5,740 nt of DNA from Gemmatimonadota bacterium (GTDB taxonomy: Bacteria > Gemmatimonadota > Gemmatimonadetes > Gemmatimonadales > GWC2-71-9), in NCBI GenBank assembly GCA_003221985.1, contig QHUQ01000008.1, forward strand, positions 1 to 5,740. Reading direction: 5' to 3'. The stretch's first letter is position 1, and each line of letters starts with the position of its first letter. Below the pieces are notes generated by a model. The model saw only the letters and a list, made by a program, of their open reading frames with translations, ran no database searches and had not been told where the DNA came from. Below are positions 1-5,663 of the stretch, piece after piece. Position numbers and translations under genes: made by a program.

Positions 1-1381
1 CGCTCATGATCTTCCCGCCGCCCCAATCAGCCTCCCACGACCAGCGGCCGCCATCCCGCAGCGCGCTCACGGGATCGTTTCCCAGCGCCGTGCTCCAATC
101 GCTCTCGAACAGCACTCCGCCTGCGGGCGCCACCGACACGGTGAGCGCGGCGGTGCCGCTCTGGCCCTCGCTCGTGGCGGTGATCGTCGCCGGGCCTGCC
201 GCGATACCCGCGACGAGCCCAGCGCCACTCACCGTCGCCACGGCTAGTGCATTGCTCGACCAGGTGACGGTGCGACCGGTAAGCGTCCGGCCGGTGGCAT
301 CCTGGAGGGTGGCCGCGAACTGCTGGACCGCCCCGACGATAACACCGGCGGTCGCCGGACTTACCGTGACCACCGCCACTGGCGCCGTGGAGCCGGCGTT
401 GGTCGTCCCGCTTGTAAGGTTCGAGAGGGGGCCGAACACCGCGTTCGTGTTCAGATTGCCACGGAAGGCGACGATCCCGAACTGATAGGCGGTCGCGGGC
501 GTCAAGCCCAACACGGTACAGCTCCTGGTCGTACCGATGGCGGTGCCGACGACCGGCGTGACGCACGTACCGCGCGTCACTGGAAGTCCCGTGCTCCACG
601 CGAGCGTGCCCACCGCGTACTTGACGATGTAGCTCGCTGGCTGACCCGTGCCATCGTCTACTTGGAGAAAGGAGAGCGTCACTGAAGTGTCTGTCGCGCC
701 TGCGACCACGAGATCGGTCACCTTCGCAGGGTTCGTCACGACGACGGAAGCGGTCACCGTGAGCGCCGCCGCCCCGTCCTTTCCTTCGCTTGTCGCGGTG
801 ATCGTGCCCGTACCGGCCGCCACGCCCGTCACCACGCCGCTGCCATTGACCGTGACGACCACCGGCGCACTGCTCACCCACGTCACCAGGCGCCCGATCA
901 GCGCGCGGCCGACCGAGTCCTTTGGCGTCGCCGTGAGCGACACCAGCTGCCCCGCCGGCACGCTCGCCGTCGCCGGACTCACCGTGACGGAGGCCACAGG
1001 CACGCTCAGCGGCGCAGGCACCTCCACCAGCGCTGCACCGCTCTTTCCTTCACTCATGGCCGTGATCGTGGACGTTCCGGTCGCCACGCCCGTCACCGTG
1101 CCGTTGATATCCACGGTGGCGACCGTCGGTGCACTGCTCGCCCACGTCACCACCCGCGCGATCAGCGCATTACCAATCGAGTCCCTGGGCGTCGCCGAGA
1201 ACTGCACCGTCTGTCCCACCGGTACGCTCGCCGTCGCCGGTGCGACGGCCACCGACGCGACTGGAGCCAACAGGCCGAGCAGCGCCCGCAGGTCGCACGC
1301 CGCCGCGGCGCAGACGGCGCCGAGCAGCACGACATTCCTGAGCAGAGCCAGGCGGCAAGACAACTTGTGCTTGAACGTCAT
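1..1381 (-). CDS. Secreted Big2/FN3-domain lipoprotein, adhesin-like (3' end outside window)
   Basis: The frame is open from ATG at 1381 to the window edge (460 codons, no stop), so the C-terminus is missing. The start is fixed by an in-frame TGA 18 nt upstream and a purine-rich RBS 6 nt before the ATG. Residues 1-28 form a signal peptide: basic n-region (K4, K6, R10, R15), hydrophobic core VVLLGAVCAAAA, then Cys29 in a lipobox-like AAAC. Ala at -3 is less usual than Leu, so lipidation is probable rather than certain. Domains in order: Big2 at about 42-121, Big2 at 130-210, FN3 at 218-328 (with Cys273 and Cys288 able to form a disulfide), Big2 at 337-416. The Big2 units show the usual VTVSPATASVP, VTWxSS, VATV and GxxTITATSEG pattern. 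From residue 423 (LFESDW) a different domain begins that I cannot name. Such proteins act outside the cell, usually as adhesins or as stalks presenting a catalytic or sugar-binding domain. The riboswitch leader implies cyclic di-GMP control. No enzymatic role is visible. Confidence 0.9.
   Translation of the reverse strand, partial: MTFKHKLSCRLALLRNVVLLGAVCAAAACDLRALLGLLAPVASVAVAPATASVPVGQTVQFSATPRDSIGNALIARVVTWASSAPTVATVDINGTVTGVATGTSTITAMSEGKSGAALVEVPAPLSVPVASVTVSPATASVPAGQLVSLTATPKDSVGRALIGRLVTWVSSAPVVVTVNGSGVVTGVAAGTGTITATSEGKDGAAALTVTASVVVTNPAKVTDLVVAGATDTSVTLSFLQVDDGTGQPASYIVKYAVGTLAWSTGLPVTRGTCVTPVVGTAIGTTRSCTVLGLTPATAYQFGIVAFRGNLNTNAVFGPLSNLTSGTTNAGSTAPVAVVTVSPATAGVIVGAVQQFAATLQDATGRTLTGRTVTWSSNALAVATVSGAGLVAGIAAGPATITATSEGQSGTAALTVSVAPAGGVLFESDWSTALGNDPVSALRDGGRWSWEADWGGGKIMS
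134..1258 (-). repeat. Three Big2 Ig-like domain repeats within the lipoprotein
   Basis: The Big2 units are encoded at 1019-1258, 752-994 and 134-373. An FN3 segment at 398-730 separates the second from the third. Units 1 and 2 are clearly closer to each other, sharing the pattern ATASVPxGQ, SxTATPxDSxGxALI and VTGVAxGTxTITA, and are adjacent, as expected from a tandem duplication. Unit 3 is more diverged. These are protein-level repeats, not mobile DNA. Confidence 0.85.
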
Positions 1382-1387
1382 AAGAAG

Positions 1388-1398
1388 CCTTCTCCCTC
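1388..1398 (-). promoter_or_regulatory. Ribosome binding site of the lipoprotein gene, target of an anti-SD
   Basis: On the minus strand the sequence GAGGGAGAAGG ends 6 nt before the ATG at 1381. Its GGGAGAA core (1390-1396) is exactly complementary to TTCTCCC at 1463-1469 in the same leader, so the site can be masked by leader folding. Confidence 0.75.
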
Positions 1399-1459
1399 AT
1401 TGGAGCTCCGGACCTGTGCTCCCCTGGGAGCGATACAGCACGGAGCCTGGTTGTTGTGC

Positions 1460-1486
1460 GGGGGGAGAACGCATAAGCCCCCCCTC
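1460..1486 (-). promoter_or_regulatory. Putative translational expression platform: G7/C6 hairpin and anti-SD
   Basis: Just downstream of aptamer 2, the minus-strand RNA carries G7 (1484-1478), a loop of about 12 nt, then TTCT followed by C6 (1465-1460). G7 with C6 forms a strong hairpin that would hide the anti-SD TTCTCCC (1469-1463) and leave the RBS free. If G7 is engaged elsewhere, TTCTCCC can pair for 7 bp with GGGAGAA of the RBS and block translation. No T-run follows the hairpin, so control here would be translational. The competing folds are my inference from complementarity. Confidence 0.55.
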
Positions 1487-1601
1487 AAAGAGCTCGGCGA
1501 CCCGACTAGCGTGGCACCTGAACGGCGTGCGGTAGCCTCGTGGCTTTGCGTCCCCGGCTTTCGCCGGGTTTGCCTTTGTCGCGCTCCCCTCGAGGGGGGG
1601 C
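1477..1601 (-). repeat. Perfect 10-nt inverted repeat clamping aptamer 2
   Basis: Plus-strand 1477-1486 (G, C7, TC) is the exact reverse complement of 1592-1601 (GA, G7, C). The arms enclose the riboswitch aptamer at 1497-1582. In the minus-strand RNA the upstream C7 arm could capture the downstream G7 and extend the aptamer's closing stem, in competition with the G7/C6 hairpin. The upstream arm can also fold locally as CCCC-TCGA-GGGG (1597-1586). Confidence 0.6.
1497..1582 (-). promoter_or_regulatory. Cyclic di-GMP-I (GEMM) riboswitch aptamer, copy 2 (gene-proximal)
   Basis: The minus-strand RNA contains the hallmark parts of the GEMM-I aptamer in the right order. GGCAAACC (1574-1567) comes first. 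A hairpin with a GAAA tetraloop follows (CCCGGC-GAAA-like, 1568-1553). Then comes the tetraloop-receptor segment GACGCAAAGCC (1552-1542), followed by ACGAGGCTA and a second arm closing with TAG. GGC (1574-1572) pairs with GCC (1544-1542), and the outer stem GCGAC (1582-1578) pairs with GTCGC (1501-1497). The length of 86 nt is normal for the family. Known aptamers of this family bind c-di-GMP, some variants c-GAMP. The switch sits in the leader of the Big2 lipoprotein gene, about 115 nt before its ATG. Confidence 0.92.
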
Positions 1602-1619
1602 GATCCTGCCGACATCACC

Positions 1620-1675
1620 AAAAAACAAAAACGGCCGCCAGAAAACTCGATGGCATCTCGAGTCGCTGGCGGCCG
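1620..1675 (-). terminator. Intrinsic terminator between the two riboswitch aptamers
   Basis: On the minus strand a 10-bp stem CGGCCGCCAG / CTGGCGGCCG (1675-1666 with 1641-1632) carries an inner 5-bp CTCGA/TCGAG hairpin. It is followed directly by TTTTTGTTTTTT (1631-1620). On the plus strand no T-run follows, so it acts in one direction. It lies 1-2 nt after the closing stem of aptamer 1, as expected for a transcriptional expression platform. Read-through is needed to reach aptamer 2 and the lipoprotein gene unless another promoter exists; the 37 nt between terminator and aptamer 2 show none. Confidence 0.88.
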
Positions 1676-1676
1676 G

Positions 1677-1753
1677 GCTGACATGGCGACCGTTGTCGCC
1701 GAAGTCCCCGTAGCTCTGCGTCACCGCCTTTCGGCGGGTTTGCTCTGAGCAGC
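1677..1753 (-). promoter_or_regulatory. Cyclic di-GMP-I (GEMM)-type riboswitch aptamer, copy 1 (distal, diverged)
   Basis: The minus-strand RNA shows GCAAACC (1743-1737), a stem CCGCC-GAAA-GGCGG (1737-1724) with a GAAA tetraloop, and GACGCAGAGC (1722-1713). Then come TACGGGG and a second hairpin GGCGAC-AACG-GTCGCC (1700-1685). A 4-bp outer stem GCTG/CAGC (1753-1750 with 1680-1677) closes the fold. Compared with copy 2, the inner pair GGC/GCC is replaced by AGC/GCT (1744-1742 with 1714-1712), a compensatory change that supports a real folded RNA. Oddities are CAGA instead of CAAA in the receptor segment and a shorter 3' half. Ligand preference may therefore differ from c-di-GMP. The aptamer leads straight into the intrinsic terminator. 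Confidence 0.8.
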
Positions 1754-2037
1754 GGCTTCAATTTTTTCCGGGGCGCTCCGGGTTTACCGACTGAGCGTGG
1801 GCACGGCCTACAACCGTCGCGACCTCACAACAACTGATGCACGGTAGCAACGGGTGCCCTGTGCGACAATAGGGGGAATCCAGTGGGGCGAAACACCGCA
1901 CTTCAAGGCGTCATGTACACGCATGATCGCCGCACCCGCCGCGTGATGCCCGTCACTCGTCCGGGGTTCGGAGCGCGCGGTTGTTCGGCGCGGCGTTTTC
2001 ACGCTCGGCGGTATGGGGCTTGCTCCTCTAGTTGCAG
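1754..2037. other. Divergent intergenic region, no gene recognised
   Basis: This stretch separates the minus-strand riboswitch leader from the plus-strand carbamoyltransferase operon and must hold promoters for both. I see no well-spaced -35/-10 pair. TATTGT (minus, 1870-1865) and GACAAT (plus, same bases) are -10-like but lack a partner. A 64-codon minus-strand frame (1808-2002) has no RBS and no recognisable sequence. Confidence 0.5.
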
Positions 2038-3882
2038 ATGAGATCGGACGCCCACGTGCCGGCCACCTACATTCTCGTCATCTCCGCTTTTTATCACGAC
2101 AGCGCCGCTTGCCTGCTGCGCGACGTCGTGATCGTCGCAGCGGCGCAGGAGGAGCGCTTCACGCGGAAGAAAGGCGACGCCGGGTTCCCGCAGCACGCCG
2201 CGCAATACTGCCTCAACGCCGCCGGGATCGGCGCTCCTGAGCTGGCATACGTCGGATTTTACGATAAGCCGTTGCTCAAGTTCGAGCGGATCTTGGAGAC
2301 CTACCTGGGCGTCGCCCCCCGCGGGTTCACGCAATTCCGTCTCGCGGGACCCGCATGGATGAAAGAGAAACTCTTCCAGGATCGCGACATCCGCGACGCC
2401 CTGAGCTACGACGGCGAGGTGCTCTATGCCGAGCATCACGAATCGCACGCGGCTAGCGCCTTCTTCCCGTCGCCCTTCGAGGAGGCGGCGATCCTGACCG
2501 TCGATGGCGTCGGAGAGTGGGCCACGGCCTCGTTCGGCACCGGGCGCGGCAATGATCTAGAGCTGCTCAAGGATCTGCGCTGGCCCGACTCCTTGGGCAT
2601 GCTCTACTCGGCGTTTACGTACTTCACCGGCTTCAAGGTGAACTCGGGCGAGTACAAGGTGATGGGACTCGCGCCCTACGGTGAACCCAAGTATGTCGAT
2701 GCGATCTACCGCGAGCTCATCGACCTGCGCGAAGACGGCTCGTTCACACTCAACCAGAAGTACTTCAACTACCTCACCGGCCTCACGATGACGGACGGGG
2801 CCTTCGACAAGCTGCTTGGCGGCCCACCCCGGGTGCCGGAGTCGAGGCTCACCCAGCGCGAGATGGATCTCGCCCGCTCGATCCAGGTCGTGTGCGAAGA
2901 AATCATGATGCGCATGGCGCGGACGGTGCACCGGGAAACCGGCATGGAGAATCTCTGTCTCGCCGGCGGCGTGGCGCTGAACTGCGTCGCCAACGGGCGC
3001 TTGCTGCGCGAAGGTCCGTTCAAGCAAATCTGGATCCAACCTGCTGCCGGCGACGCGGGTGGTGCGCTTGGCGTAGCCCAGCTCATTTGGCATCGCCATT
3101 GCCGGCAACCACGCACCGTCACCAACGGGAACGACGCCATGCGCGGGGCCTATCTCGGACCCGAGTATTCGCCGGACGAGATCCGAGAGTACCTGGACGC
3201 GCAGGGGGCCACCTACGAGCGACTGGAGCGTCACTGCCTCCTCGAGCGCGTGGCCCGGCTGCTCGCCGAAGAGAAGGTGGTCGGCTGGTTCGATGGCCGC
3301 ATGGAGTTCGGACCACGTGCGCTCGGCGCGCGCAGCATCCTCGGCGACCCGCGGAGCCCGCGCATGCAGGCGCAGATGAACCTGAAGATCAAGTTCCGGG
3401 AAGGCTTTCGCCCGTTCGCGCCGAGCGTGCTGCGCGAGCGCGTGCACGACTACTTCGAGTTGGACTGCGAGTCCCCGTACATGCTGCTGGTGGCGCCGGT
3501 GAAGCAGGAGCGCCAGATCCCGATGACCACCGAGCAGCGGGGGCTGTGGGGCATCGACCAGCTCAATGTGCTGCGCTCCGACATTCCGGCCGTGACCCAT
3601 ATCGACTACTCGGCGCGCATCCAGACGGTGAGCCGGGACACCAACCCCAACTATTACGACCTGATCAAGGAGTTCGAGCGCCTGACCGGCTGCGCCGTCC
3701 TCGTCAACACGTCGTTCAACGTGCGGGGCGAGCCGATCGTGTGCACACCGGCGGACGCCTACCAATGCTTCATGCGCACGCACATCGACTACCTCGTGCT
3801 GGGACCGTTTCTCCTCGACAAGAGCCAGCAACCGGCATGGAAGGAGAGCGCGGATTGGCAGCGCGAGTTCCAGCTCGACTGA
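2038..3882 (+). CDS. NodU/CmcH/TobZ-family O-carbamoyltransferase
   Basis: This 614-aa enzyme is normal length for a family that transfers carbamoyl from carbamoyl phosphate to a hydroxyl group through a carbamoyl-adenylate, in the cytoplasm. Conserved blocks (numbered from ATG 2038): ISAFYHDSAACLL (15-27), AQEERFTRKKGDAGFP (36-51), the metal-binding HHESHAASAF (133-142), TVDGVGEW (154-161), VNSGEYKVMGLAPYG (201-215), LAGGVALNC (308-316) and GDAGGALG (338-345) in the Kae1-like N-terminal part. GWFDGRMEFGPRALGARSIL (416-435), GFRPFAPS (456-463) and LVNTSFNVRGEPI (555-567) mark the C-terminal YrdC-like part. All key motifs are intact. Start choice is uncertain. An in-frame TAG at 2029 leaves TTG 2032, ATG 2038 or GTG 2056; none has a good RBS, and GTG 2056 gives the most family-like N-terminus. 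It is the first gene of a four-gene operon. The acceptor cannot be read from sequence. Confidence 0.96.
   Translation: MRSDAHVPATYILVISAFYHDSAACLLRDVVIVAAAQEERFTRKKGDAGFPQHAAQYCLNAAGIGAPELAYVGFYDKPLLKFERILETYLGVAPRGFTQFRLAGPAWMKEKLFQDRDIRDALSYDGEVLYAEHHESHAASAFFPSPFEEAAILTVDGVGEWATASFGTGRGNDLELLKDLRWPDSLGMLYSAFTYFTGFKVNSGEYKVMGLAPYGEPKYVDAIYRELIDLREDGSFTLNQKYFNYLTGLTMTDGAFDKLLGGPPRVPESRLTQREMDLARSIQVVCEEIMMRMARTVHRETGMENLCLAGGVALNCVANGRLLREGPFKQIWIQPAAGDAGGALGVAQLIWHRHCRQPRTVTNGNDAMRGAYLGPEYSPDEIREYLDAQGATYERLERHCLLERVARLLAEEKVVGWFDGRMEFGPRALGARSILGDPRSPRMQAQMNLKIKFREGFRPFAPSVLRERVHDYFELDCESPYMLLVAPVKQERQIPMTTEQRGLWGIDQLNVLRSDIPAVTHIDYSARIQTVSRDTNPNYYDLIKEFERLTGCAVLVNTSFNVRGEPIVCTPADAYQCFMRTHIDYLVLGPFLLDKSQQPAWKESADWQREFQLD
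3841..3846 (+). promoter_or_regulatory. RBS deciding a TTG start for the SxtJ gene
   Basis: AAGGAG lies 8 nt before TTG at 3855, inside the 3' end of the carbamoyltransferase gene. The alternatives ATG 3837 and CTG 3879 lack a comparably placed site. Confidence 0.65.
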
Positions 3883-4275: not shown

Positions 4276-4434
4276 ATGGGCCGGATGACCTTGGCTGGGG
4301 AGTTGTGGGCATTCATGCGCGTGCGCAAGAAGTGGTGGCTGTTGCCAATCGTGCTGGTGATGCTCGTCGTCGGCACGCTCATGGTCTTCGCGCATGGGTC
4401 GGTGCTGGCGCCTTTCATCTACACGATCTTTTGA
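4276..4434 (+). CDS. DUF5989 / SxtK-like single-helix membrane protein, 52 aa
   Basis: This small gene is easy to miss. It begins at ATG 4276, 13 nt after the SxtJ stop, with a strong RBS. Sequence layout: an amphipathic start with GELWAFMRVRKKWW (8-21), one transmembrane helix LLPIVLVMLVVGTLMVF (22-38), and the conserved ending GSVLAPFIYTIF (41-52). The ELWAFxxxRKKWWLLP start and APFIYTxF end are what I know from DUF5989 proteins, which sit beside carbamoyltransferases. SxtK of saxitoxin clusters is a protein of similar size at the same position. No catalytic residues are apparent. Basic residues before the helix suggest N-in orientation with a short outer tail. A structural or coupling role within the carbamoylation system is inferred. 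Confidence 0.88.
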   Translation: MGRMTLAGELWAFMRVRKKWWLLPIVLVMLVVGTLMVFAHGSVLAPFIYTIF

Positions 4435-5663
4435 ACCTGCGGCATTCGAAGCTGTGGCCCCCCATCGTCCTCGGCCTCCTGGTCGTCGCGACGCTGGAGG
4501 GCCTCTCCTTGGCGGTCCTTCACCTCAGCCGCCCGCTGCTGACCGAGGAGATCAGAACCACGCGCGACATCTGGCGGGAGCAGAGCGTCCTGATGCGCCA
4601 GCTCCTGCAAGGGCGCGGGCTGCTCGCCGTGGACTCCGCGCTGGGGTGGCGCTACCGCTCGGATATTGCGACCGCGCGTGATCAGACGAACTCGCGCGGC
4701 TTGCGCAGCGCGCGGGAATACAGCGCCGTGCCCGCGGACTCCGTCGTGCGCGTTGCGGCGTTCGGCGACTCGTTCGTGTACGGGAACGAGGTCGACAACG
4801 CGAGCTGCTGGCCGGTGCTGGCCGAGCACATCTATCCGCGGCTCGAGGTCCTCAACTACGGTGTCGGCGGATACGGGAACGATCAGGCGTACCTGCGCTT
4901 TCTCGCCGATGGCCGAAGCCTCTCCCCGCGCATCGCGATTCTCGGCTTCACGCCGACCGATTTCGGCCGGGTGGTGAACGTCTACCGCCGATTTCTCTCG
5001 AACCGGGAGCTACCCCTCTTCAAACCGCGGTTCGTGCTGCGCGCCGGCGGCCAGCTCGAGCTGGTGCCCAGCCCCGTGCGAGCTCCGGCGGATTACGCCA
5101 GGTATCTCGAGCACCCCGAAGCCGTCACGACGCTGGGGCGCGGCGACGCCTGGTACGAACCGGCGATCTACGAAGACCCGTTGTACGACATCTCGGCAAC
5201 GGTACGCCTGCTCACCGGGCTGTGGATCAAGGTGCGCCGCCGCTACGTCGATGGCGATCGGCTGGTGCGGGACGGCGTTTTCAATCGTGCCTCGACCGCG
5301 TTCGCCCTGCAGACCACACTCTTTCAAAGCTTCGCGGCGAAGGCACGAGCAGCCGGAATTGTCCCGCTTGTCATCATCCTCCCCGACCGCGAGTCTATCG
5401 TCCGCCGTCGGGACGGCCACGCGCCGATCTTTGCGCCGCTGGTTGATGACCTGCGAGCGAAGGGGATTGACTATCTCGACCTCACGGAGGCGTTCCTCGC
5501 GCGCGAGGCCCGCCAGCCCCCGGACGGCTGGTTCATGCCTGGGGGTCACTACTCACCGAGCGCCAACCGACTCATTGCCGAGTGGCTCGGCCCGCGGCTG
5601 TTGGAGCGCGTCCGGCCTCCGGGCGCGACTAGCTCATATCCCAGGACGGCCGGGCGCGGATAA
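4431..5663 (+). CDS. Membrane-anchored SGNH/GDSL-like hydrolase
   Basis: From TTG 4431 the product is 410 aa. This codon overlaps the upstream stop (TTGA), so translation probably restarts after the small gene ends; no RBS is visible. GTG 4305 is unlikely because it would overlap the whole 3' part of the DUF5989 gene. A single N-terminal membrane helix (10-32) precedes a domain that should lie outside the cytoplasm. SGNH signatures: block I VAAFGDSFVYG (108-118) with nucleophile Ser114, Gly-block NYGVGGYGNDQ (142-151), block III position ILGFTPTDFGR (170-180), and block V GGHYSPSANRLIAEWL (371-386) with His373. The usual Asn of block III is missing, and Asp at -3 of the catalytic His is replaced by Pro370, so chemistry may differ. 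Such proteins are esterases, deacetylases or acyltransferases, often on glycans. SxtL, a GDSL lipase-like protein, holds the same place in saxitoxin clusters. Confidence 0.88.
   Translation: MNLRHSKLWPPIVLGLLVVATLEGLSLAVLHLSRPLLTEEIRTTRDIWREQSVLMRQLLQGRGLLAVDSALGWRYRSDIATARDQTNSRGLRSAREYSAVPADSVVRVAAFGDSFVYGNEVDNASCWPVLAEHIYPRLEVLNYGVGGYGNDQAYLRFLADGRSLSPRIAILGFTPTDFGRVVNVYRRFLSNRELPLFKPRFVLRAGGQLELVPSPVRAPADYARYLEHPEAVTTLGRGDAWYEPAIYEDPLYDISATVRLLTGLWIKVRRRYVDGDRLVRDGVFNRASTAFALQTTLFQSFAAKARAAGIVPLVIILPDRESIVRRRDGHAPIFAPLVDDLRAKGIDYLDLTEAFLAREARQPPDGWFMPGGHYSPSANRLIAEWLGPRLLERVRPPGATSSYPRTAGRG

What the first reader, a model, noticed from the sequence alone, without database searches (positions are those of the whole stretch)
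1497..1753. Tandem GEMM / c-di-GMP-I riboswitches separated by an intrinsic terminator
Two complete aptamers lie in the same leader. The distal one abuts a 10-bp terminator with a 12-nt T-rich tail. The proximal one is followed by an apparent SD-masking platform. This predicts transcriptional control, then translational control, of one gene. Tandem GEMM aptamers are known, but two aptamers with different platform types in one leader would be a notable logic element.
Basis: partly seen in the sequence, partly recalled or inferred. Interest (0 to 1): 0.8.

Follow-up and report, generated by a model that had tools for sequence, protein, structure and literature searches.

The report
Two-signal tandem cyclic-dinucleotide riboswitch leader
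In front of a surface-protein gene of a soil-type bacterium lie two related RNA sensors in a row, whose key letters suggest that the first reads cGAMP to stop or continue transcription and the second reads c-di-GMP to control translation, so one leader may compare two signals.

Summary
Confirmed: two complete GEMM-I aptamers on the minus strand, 1754-1665 (52.3 bits) and 1583-1492 (66.8 bits), with a strong intrinsic terminator between them (z -6.0).
New here: they are different subtypes. The distal one has A at ligand-selecting position 20 (window 1744), the published mark of cGAMP-type GEMM-I; the proximal one has G (window 1574), the c-di-GMP letter. This A-then-G order recurs in 8 other leaders of 6 Gemmatimonadota genomes, before Big_2 proteins in 8 of 8. 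The A20 type is followed by a terminator re-using the 3' P1 strand in 90 of 108 cases, G20 in 4 of 35, as in the cGAMP ON switch pilM. All six tandem genomes encode a GGDEF with Hypr (cGAMP synthase) residues.
Against: 35 of 58 A20 genomes lack that enzyme at the cut-off used; no ligand was tested; the sign of the second switch is weakly supported (OFF favoured); in this window it masks the start of a 25-codon ORF, not of the Big_2 gene.
Verdict: a real, conserved variant of tandem riboswitch, probably two-ligand and two-mechanism.

The parts
1665..1754 (-). Distal GEMM-I aptamer, A20 subtype (A20 at 1744, A47 at 1717, G48 at 1716); P1 = 1750-1754 with 1664-1668
   Evidence: RF01051, 52.3 bits; positions; subtype; P1 pairing in relatives
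1620..1675 (-). Intrinsic terminator: stem 1666-1675 with 1632-1641, inner stem 1658-1664 with 1644-1650, T tract 1620-1631; its 5' arm re-uses the 3' P1 strand and C92 (1669)
   Evidence: z -6.0; same design in 90 of 108 A20 aptamers
1600..1611 (-). Motif CGGCAGGATCGC shared with part of the G20-type leaders; role unknown
   Evidence: 18 of 83 G20, 0 of 118 A20 aptamers
1592..1601 (-). C1, anti-SD strand, perfect complement of the SD at 1477-1486
   Evidence: sequence; own-against-swapped pairing test in 35 G20 leaders
1588..1591 (-). G1, strand beside P1 that can pair with C1 instead (CCCCUCGAGGGG hairpin with 1592-1599)
   Evidence: sequence; similar hairpins in the other tandems
1492..1583 (-). 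Proximal GEMM-I aptamer, G20 subtype (G20 at 1574, A47 at 1547)
   Evidence: RF03167, 66.8 bits, but A47, not the G of that family's consensus (alignment)
1477..1486 (-). SD GAGGGGGGGC that C1 can mask
   Evidence: sequence; model
1397..1474 (-). 25-codon ORF (MRSPPAQQ...) whose start the second platform controls; ends next to the SD of the Big_2 gene
1388..1398 (-). Purine-rich SD of the Big_2 gene
   Evidence: sequence
2..1381 (-). Big_2 / fn3 protein with a lipoprotein-like start, open at the window's end
   Evidence: Pfam PF02368, PF00041

Best explanation
The leader carries two GEMM-I riboswitches of different subtype. The first (A20) most likely binds 3',3'-cGAMP; binding holds P1 and C92 and so prevents the terminator that needs the same strand, letting RNA polymerase pass (ON). 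The second (G20) most likely binds c-di-GMP and decides through an upstream anti-SD strand whether the next SD is open; the folding model weakly favours closing on binding (OFF), which would give 'cGAMP and not c-di-GMP'. Shown here: both aptamers, the terminator, the A-then-G order and its recurrence, the mutually exclusive strands, and a GGDEF with Hypr residues in the tandem genomes. Inferred: both ligands, both signs, and that in this window control of the 25-codon ORF is passed to the Big_2 gene by translational coupling.
For: Two Rfam hits and a terminator with z -6.0. A20 at 1744 against G20 at 1574; PMC6456294 (passages): A20 to G20 turns a cGAMP-selective Geobacter aptamer into a c-di-GMP-selective one. 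Same A-then-G tandem in 8 further leaders of 6 genomes, before Big_2 genes in 8 of 8. Terminator arm against P1/C92 in 90 of 108 A20 and 4 of 35 G20 aptamers; P1 keeps pairing through double changes; same design as pilM, a cGAMP ON switch (PMC9262584, passages). Hypr-type GGDEF (Ser with GGDEF) in 31 of 395 genomes, 30 of the 31 read, in 6 of 6 tandem genomes and in 23 of 58 confirmed A20 genomes; cross-dimer residue Tyr 21, His 7, Asn 1, Gln 1, Arg 0. Upstream and SD strands pair better with their own partner than when swapped, -20.6 against -17.4 kcal/mol, p 2e-5, n 35.
Against: 35 of 58 A20 genomes lack the Hypr lineage at E 1e-40; in eight of them 30 of 65 matches were read and all 30 have Asp; in G188 and G267, 10 of 13 GGDEF matches were read, all Asp. 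G001, nearest to the window, has no hit. The overlap p ignores kinship. A20 is described as a selectivity factor, not a hard filter (PMC9262584); G48 differs from the A42 of the Geobacter cGAMP aptamer (PMC6274999). The sign of the second switch is weak: 13 lower, 5 higher, 16 unchanged (one of 35 on the boundary), p 0.03; of nine tandems 3 lower, none higher; in the window the SD is closed in both states. The own partner ranks only 10 of 35 at the median.
Confidence: 0.5

Rival explanations
1. Both aptamers answer to c-di-GMP, the A20 type being promiscuous or c-di-GMP-binding. The leader is then a one-ligand, two-mechanism tandem: a steeper response if both are ON, or a band-pass if the first is ON and the second OFF.
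For: 35 of 58 A20 genomes have no hit of the Hypr lineage; position 20 is not a hard filter (PMC9262584); G48 differs from the known cGAMP aptamer (PMC6274999). One-ligand tandems of this class are common (347 doublets, PMC9481103).
Against: The A20 and G20 types differ consistently, also at position 48, and the order is fixed in 9 of 9 mixed tandems; all six tandem genomes have the Hypr lineage.
Confidence: 0.27
2. The second switch is an ON switch: P1 extension takes up the CCUC strand that follows the aptamer and frees the SD. The leader is then an AND gate of cGAMP and c-di-GMP.
For: CCGAACCUC follows the aptamer in 8 of 8 relatives and CCUC can pair with the SD or with the G strand beside P1; 5 of 35 leaders open in the model when P1 is forced.
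Against: 13 of 35 close, and none of the nine tandems opens.
Confidence: 0.3
3. In this window the second switch is a relic: the leader was joined by recombination to another paralogue's start, so it governs only a 25-codon ORF and the Big_2 gene is controlled by the first switch alone.
For: In the relatives the G20 aptamer sits 23-29 nt (from C92) before the start of the long Big_2 ORF, here before a 25-codon ORF; the SD is closed in both model states.
Against: The aptamer and the 10-nt SD complement are intact; the ORF's stop touches the SD of the Big_2 gene, which would allow coupling; L050 also has a short ORF ending just before its gene.
Confidence: 0.3
4. The two aptamers are not one leader: a promoter between the terminator and the second aptamer starts a separate transcript.
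For: G20 aptamers also occur alone, and 18 of 83 share the motif CGGCAGGATCG 35-47 nt before position 20, which could mark a start.
Against: Only 8 nt lie between T tract and motif in the window; the sequence before the motif looks unconserved by eye in the 18 rows; the scan found no sigma-70-like site (which does not cover other promoter types).
Confidence: 0.12

Closest known systems
Tandem c-di-GMP-I riboswitches (347 doublets and 12 triplets in PMC9481103, passages; triple Bc3-5 of Bacillus thuringiensis, PMC4759541, abstract in listing)
   Same: Two GEMM-I aptamers in one leader, each with its own platform
   Different: Treated there as one-ligand; here the two differ at the ligand-selecting nucleotide and in platform type
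cGAMP riboswitches GEMM-Ib, for example pilM of Geobacter metallireducens (PMC9262584, PMC6456294, passages), tandem copies in G. sulfurreducens
   Same: A20; terminator that uses the P1 strand and the C that pairs with the ligand; ON design
   Different: G48 instead of the A of the Geobacter aptamer; Gemmatimonadota; followed by a G20 aptamer
Bi-mechanism SAM-II/SAM-V tandems (PMC9481103, passages)
   Same: First switch at a terminator, second at the ribosome site
   Different: One ligand there; other aptamer classes
AdoCbl / c-di-GMP-I and AdoCbl / c-AMP-GMP gates of Desulfobacca acetoxidans (PMC9481103, passages)
   Same: Logic gates that use G20 and A20 GEMM-I aptamers
   Different: Each is paired with cobalamin; Table 2 as shown has no pair of c-AMP-GMP with c-di-GMP

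Membership tests
GEMM-I / c-di-GMP-I (clan CL00126) | Covariance match above gathering score | tested here: met
   52.3 and 66.8 bits
GEMM-I / c-di-GMP-I (clan CL00126) | Binding of a cyclic dinucleotide | not testable with these tools
   needs in-line probing
c-di-GMP-I-GGC (RF03167), proximal aptamer | G at position 47 in the family consensus (that this letter defines the variant is my reading) | tested here: not met
   consensus GACGCGAA, window GACGCAAA
cGAMP riboswitch (GEMM-Ib), distal aptamer | A at position 20 | tested here: met
   A at 1744
cGAMP riboswitch (GEMM-Ib), distal aptamer | Selectivity for cGAMP over c-di-GMP | not testable with these tools
   needs binding assay
cGAMP riboswitch (GEMM-Ib), distal aptamer | A cGAMP synthase in the host | tested here: inconclusive
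   window's genome not held; Hypr-type GGDEF in 6 of 6 tandem genomes, 23 of 58 A20 genomes
Bi-mechanism tandem riboswitch | First platform a terminator, second an SD mask | tested here: met
   structure only; function not tested
Two-input riboswitch gate | Two different ligands | not testable with these tools
   inferred from A20 against G20
Hypr GGDEF (in relatives) | Ser/Thr at 348 with GGDE[F/Y] | tested here: met
   30 of 30 read, of 31 found; marks from PMC6456294

The most novel reading that the evidence does not exclude
A recurring RNA device of Gemmatimonadota that compares two cyclic dinucleotides in one leader: cGAMP opens transcription, c-di-GMP then closes (or opens) translation of Big_2 surface proteins, with a lineage of Hypr GGDEF enzymes as the cGAMP source in the tandem genomes. 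The A20/G48 aptamers would be a cGAMP-sensor variant outside Geobacter, confirmed in 58 of 395 genomes searched in the phylum.
Probability: 0.45. Interest if true: 0.75.

Novelty: new variant of a known kind. Interest (0 to 1): 0.6.

Why it matters
A tandem that reads two different cyclic dinucleotides is not in the logic-gate table of the main review as shown to me (PMC9481103). If true, bacteria with a Hypr enzyme would read its messengers with an RNA that tells them apart, and a phylum with little known signalling would gain cGAMP signalling with predicted surface-protein targets. It also suggests that doublets counted as c-di-GMP-I twice can hide two specificities, which can be checked in the hundreds already listed.

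Tried and rejected
The GGC label of the proximal aptamer was dropped, because it has A where that family's consensus has G. A search in the window's own genome was not possible. The sigma-70-like scan found no site. My first GGDEF expression found 0 motifs because it was too strict and was replaced. The first aptamer filters lost true aptamers and were relaxed. In one search the start codon of L152 was chosen wrongly; one search used a stricter choice and kept 35 G20 leaders, dropping those without C13-G14, CCGA, an SD-like stretch and a start in range (one search counted 83 unique G20 aptamers under looser rules). In one search the local folds of the upstream and downstream strands were hardly better than shuffles (mean z -0.3 and -0.8), so nothing rests on them; the region 1500-1385 folds no better than shuffles (z -0.6). 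The expression used for eight Hypr-positive genomes was too loose; their aptamers were read by position.

Sampling limits: of 91 genomes with the A20 pattern (whose reversed control pattern also rings at a low level), loci of 61 were read and 58 confirmed; the rest were not fetched, because the listed string showed no GEMM hairpin by eye or the match was not listed. Because loci were fetched around the A20 pattern, the proportions of A20 and G20 are no census. Of 395 genomes drawn from a larger phylum, many are incomplete MAGs.

Full report
What is there. On the minus strand, upstream of a gene for a Big_2/fn3 protein (ATG 1381), Rfam finds two GEMM-I aptamers, 1754-1665 (RF01051, 52.3 bits) and 1583-1492 (RF03167, 66.8 bits), and nothing else at gathering score. 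Between them stands a terminator of 10 + 7 bp with a T-rich tail, z -6.0. By kinship the host is a Gemmatimonadota bacterium: the divergent carbamoyltransferase is 95% identical (best segment) to that of a MAG labelled Gemmatimonadetes AG35 (L050), and the next relatives are mostly labelled Gemmatimonadota, some Acidobacteria or Chloroflexi. The window's own genome is not held.

Two subtypes, not two copies. Read by position, the distal aptamer has A20, A47, G48; the proximal one G20, A47, A48. In PMC6456294 (passages) changing A20 to G20 turns a cGAMP-selective aptamer of Geobacter into a c-di-GMP-selective one, and PMC9481103 (passages) uses the same letter to tell c-AMP-GMP from c-di-GMP aptamers. 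PMC9262584 (passages) calls the position a selectivity factor rather than a hard filter. The proximal aptamer scores best with RF03167 but has A where that family has G, so I take it as an ordinary c-di-GMP-I aptamer. The numbering by Vc2 is recalled and was anchored on the alignments.

Conservation. RF01051 is found in 205 of 395 genomes searched in the phylum. The A20 pattern rings in 91 of 395; I read loci of 61 of these and confirmed A20 with G48 in 58. Of 150 unique aptamers in the loci at hand, 102 were A20 with AGAG, 39 G20 with AAAG or AAAA, 3 A20 with AAAG and 6 something else. Besides the window, eight leaders in six genomes (G002, G030, G044 three times, G162, G237, G287) hold an A20 aptamer followed about 160-185 nt later by a G20 aptamer. 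The reverse order was not seen, whose loci include 300 nt upstream of each A20 site where the contig allowed. A20-A20 doublets and a triplet also occur. The eight genes behind the other tandems all match Big_2, several cut by the locus end.

First platform. Downstream of the A20 aptamer, an arm that complements the stretch with C92 and C93 in at least 7 of 8 letters and is followed by at least 4 T in 12 is present in 90 of 108 unique A20 aptamers and in 4 of 35 G20 aptamers. P1 keeps pairing through double changes: pair 10-97 is C-G 76, T-A 12, G-C 1, A-T 1, T-G 4 and 14 not paired of 108; pair 11-96 is G-C 98, A-T 5, C-G 1, G-T 2, and 2 not paired. Terminator and P1 use the same strand, so ligand binding should prevent termination: the design of pilM, a cGAMP ON switch (PMC9262584, passages).

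Second platform. In the nine tandems C92 of the G20 aptamer lies 23-29 nt before the start codon; in the eight relatives CCGAACCUC ends the aptamer and an SD follows. Upstream lies a C-rich strand that can pair either with a G-rich strand beside P1 or with the SD. In 35 G20 leaders the upstream strand pairs better with its own downstream strand than with those of other leaders (-20.6 against -17.4 kcal/mol, p 2e-5), though the own partner ranks only 10 of 35 at the median. Forcing P1 lowers SD opening by more than 0.05 in 13, raises it in 5 and leaves 16 unchanged, one being on the boundary (p 0.03); in the nine tandems 3, 0 and 6. I therefore favour OFF on binding of c-di-GMP, weakly. In the window the match of 1592-1601 to the SD 1477-1486 is perfect and the SD is closed in both model states, so the model shows no ligand effect there.

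What the second switch controls here. The SD at 1477-1486 precedes an ATG at 1474 that opens a 25-codon ORF. Its stop (1399-1397) touches the SD of the Big_2 gene (1398-1388). L050, with an A20 aptamer only, also has a short ORF that ends just before its homologous gene. Coupling is possible; a relic is possible too.

A source of cGAMP. The six tandem genomes hold 14-20 GGDEF matches each. One lineage has Ser where canonical enzymes have Asp, together with GGDEF. It rings in 31 of 395 genomes at E 1e-40; 30 of the 31 were read, and 30 of 30 have Ser and GGDEF. The residue at the cross-dimer position, placed by me 44 before the Ser (position 303 in GsGacA), is Tyr 21, His 7, Asn 1, Gln 1, Arg 0. 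PMC6456294 (passages) gives Ser/Thr with GGDE[F/Y] as the Hypr mark and reports that two enzymes with Arg made more c-di-GMP, while those with Tyr, Ser, Ala or Gln made mainly cGAMP. The lineage is in 6 of 6 tandem genomes and in 23 of the 58 genomes with confirmed A20/G48; two more of the 31 (G084, G272) have A20 aptamers with other changes. Taken as independent, the overlap has p 3e-15, but genomes are related and that figure overstates it. Against: 35 of 58 A20 genomes lack it at that cut-off. In eight of these, 30 of 65 matches were read and all have Asp; in two of them searched with Pfam, 10 of 13 domains were read, all Asp, three not readable. As a control, 30 of 74 matches read in eight genomes chosen for having RF01051 but no confirmed A20 also all have Asp.

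Known or new. Tandem GEMM-I leaders are common in print: 347 doublets and 12 triplets in PMC9481103 (passages), and tandem copies in Geobacter (PMC6456294, passages). Bi-mechanism tandems are known for SAM (PMC9481103). A pair of cGAMP-type and c-di-GMP-type GEMM-I in one leader is not in Table 2 of PMC9481103 as shown. My searches were: tandem with riboswitch, cGAMP, c-di-GMP and AND gate (20 of 28 listed); Gemmatimonadetes with c-di-GMP and riboswitch (0 papers); Gemmatimon with cGAMP or Hypr (15 of 41 listed, none of these 15 holding 'gemmatimon'); Gemmatimon with riboswitch or cyclic di-GMP (15 of 492 listed, likewise). None showed such a pair in title, abstract or passages seen; only open-licence papers are held. 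I file it as a new variant of a known kind.

Noticed in passing
window 1600-1611 (-); also L003, L073, L095, L109, L115, L122, L126, L132, L154, L163, L165, L276, L278, L282, L284, L295, L302: An 11-12 nt motif CGGCAGGATCGC (L154 with one or two changes) lies 35-47 nt before position 20 in 18 of 83 G20 aptamers, tandem or single, and in 0 of 118 A20 aptamers; the flanks before it look unconserved. Role unknown.
   Followed up: partly
L261 (G001), L263 (G044), L307 (G162), L313 (G287), L315 (G237), L318 (G002), L326 (G030): A second GGDEF class with Asn at the selectivity position (GHEAGN) was seen once in each of the seven genomes; its product is unknown to me.
   Followed up: no
L084, L090, L092, L212: A20-A20 doublets and a triplet (L090) in which each aptamer has its own terminator-like hairpin.
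   Followed up: no
window 1542-1552 (-): The proximal aptamer scores above the gathering score of RF03167 although it has A where that family's consensus has G; automatic labels would call it GGC.
   Followed up: partly
L050 9608-9400 (-): The nearest relative has the A20 aptamer and a short ORF (MPFTFKL...) before the homologous Big_2 gene but no G20 aptamer found there.
   Followed up: partly
L436 (G272), L438 (G084): Two Hypr-positive genomes have A20 aptamers with GGCGC in place of GACGC, missed by the pattern.
   Followed up: no
window 2032-3882 and 4305-5663 (+): Divergent carbamoyltransferase (PF02543, PF16861) and a protein with a GDSL-like match below the Pfam cut-off.
   Followed up: no
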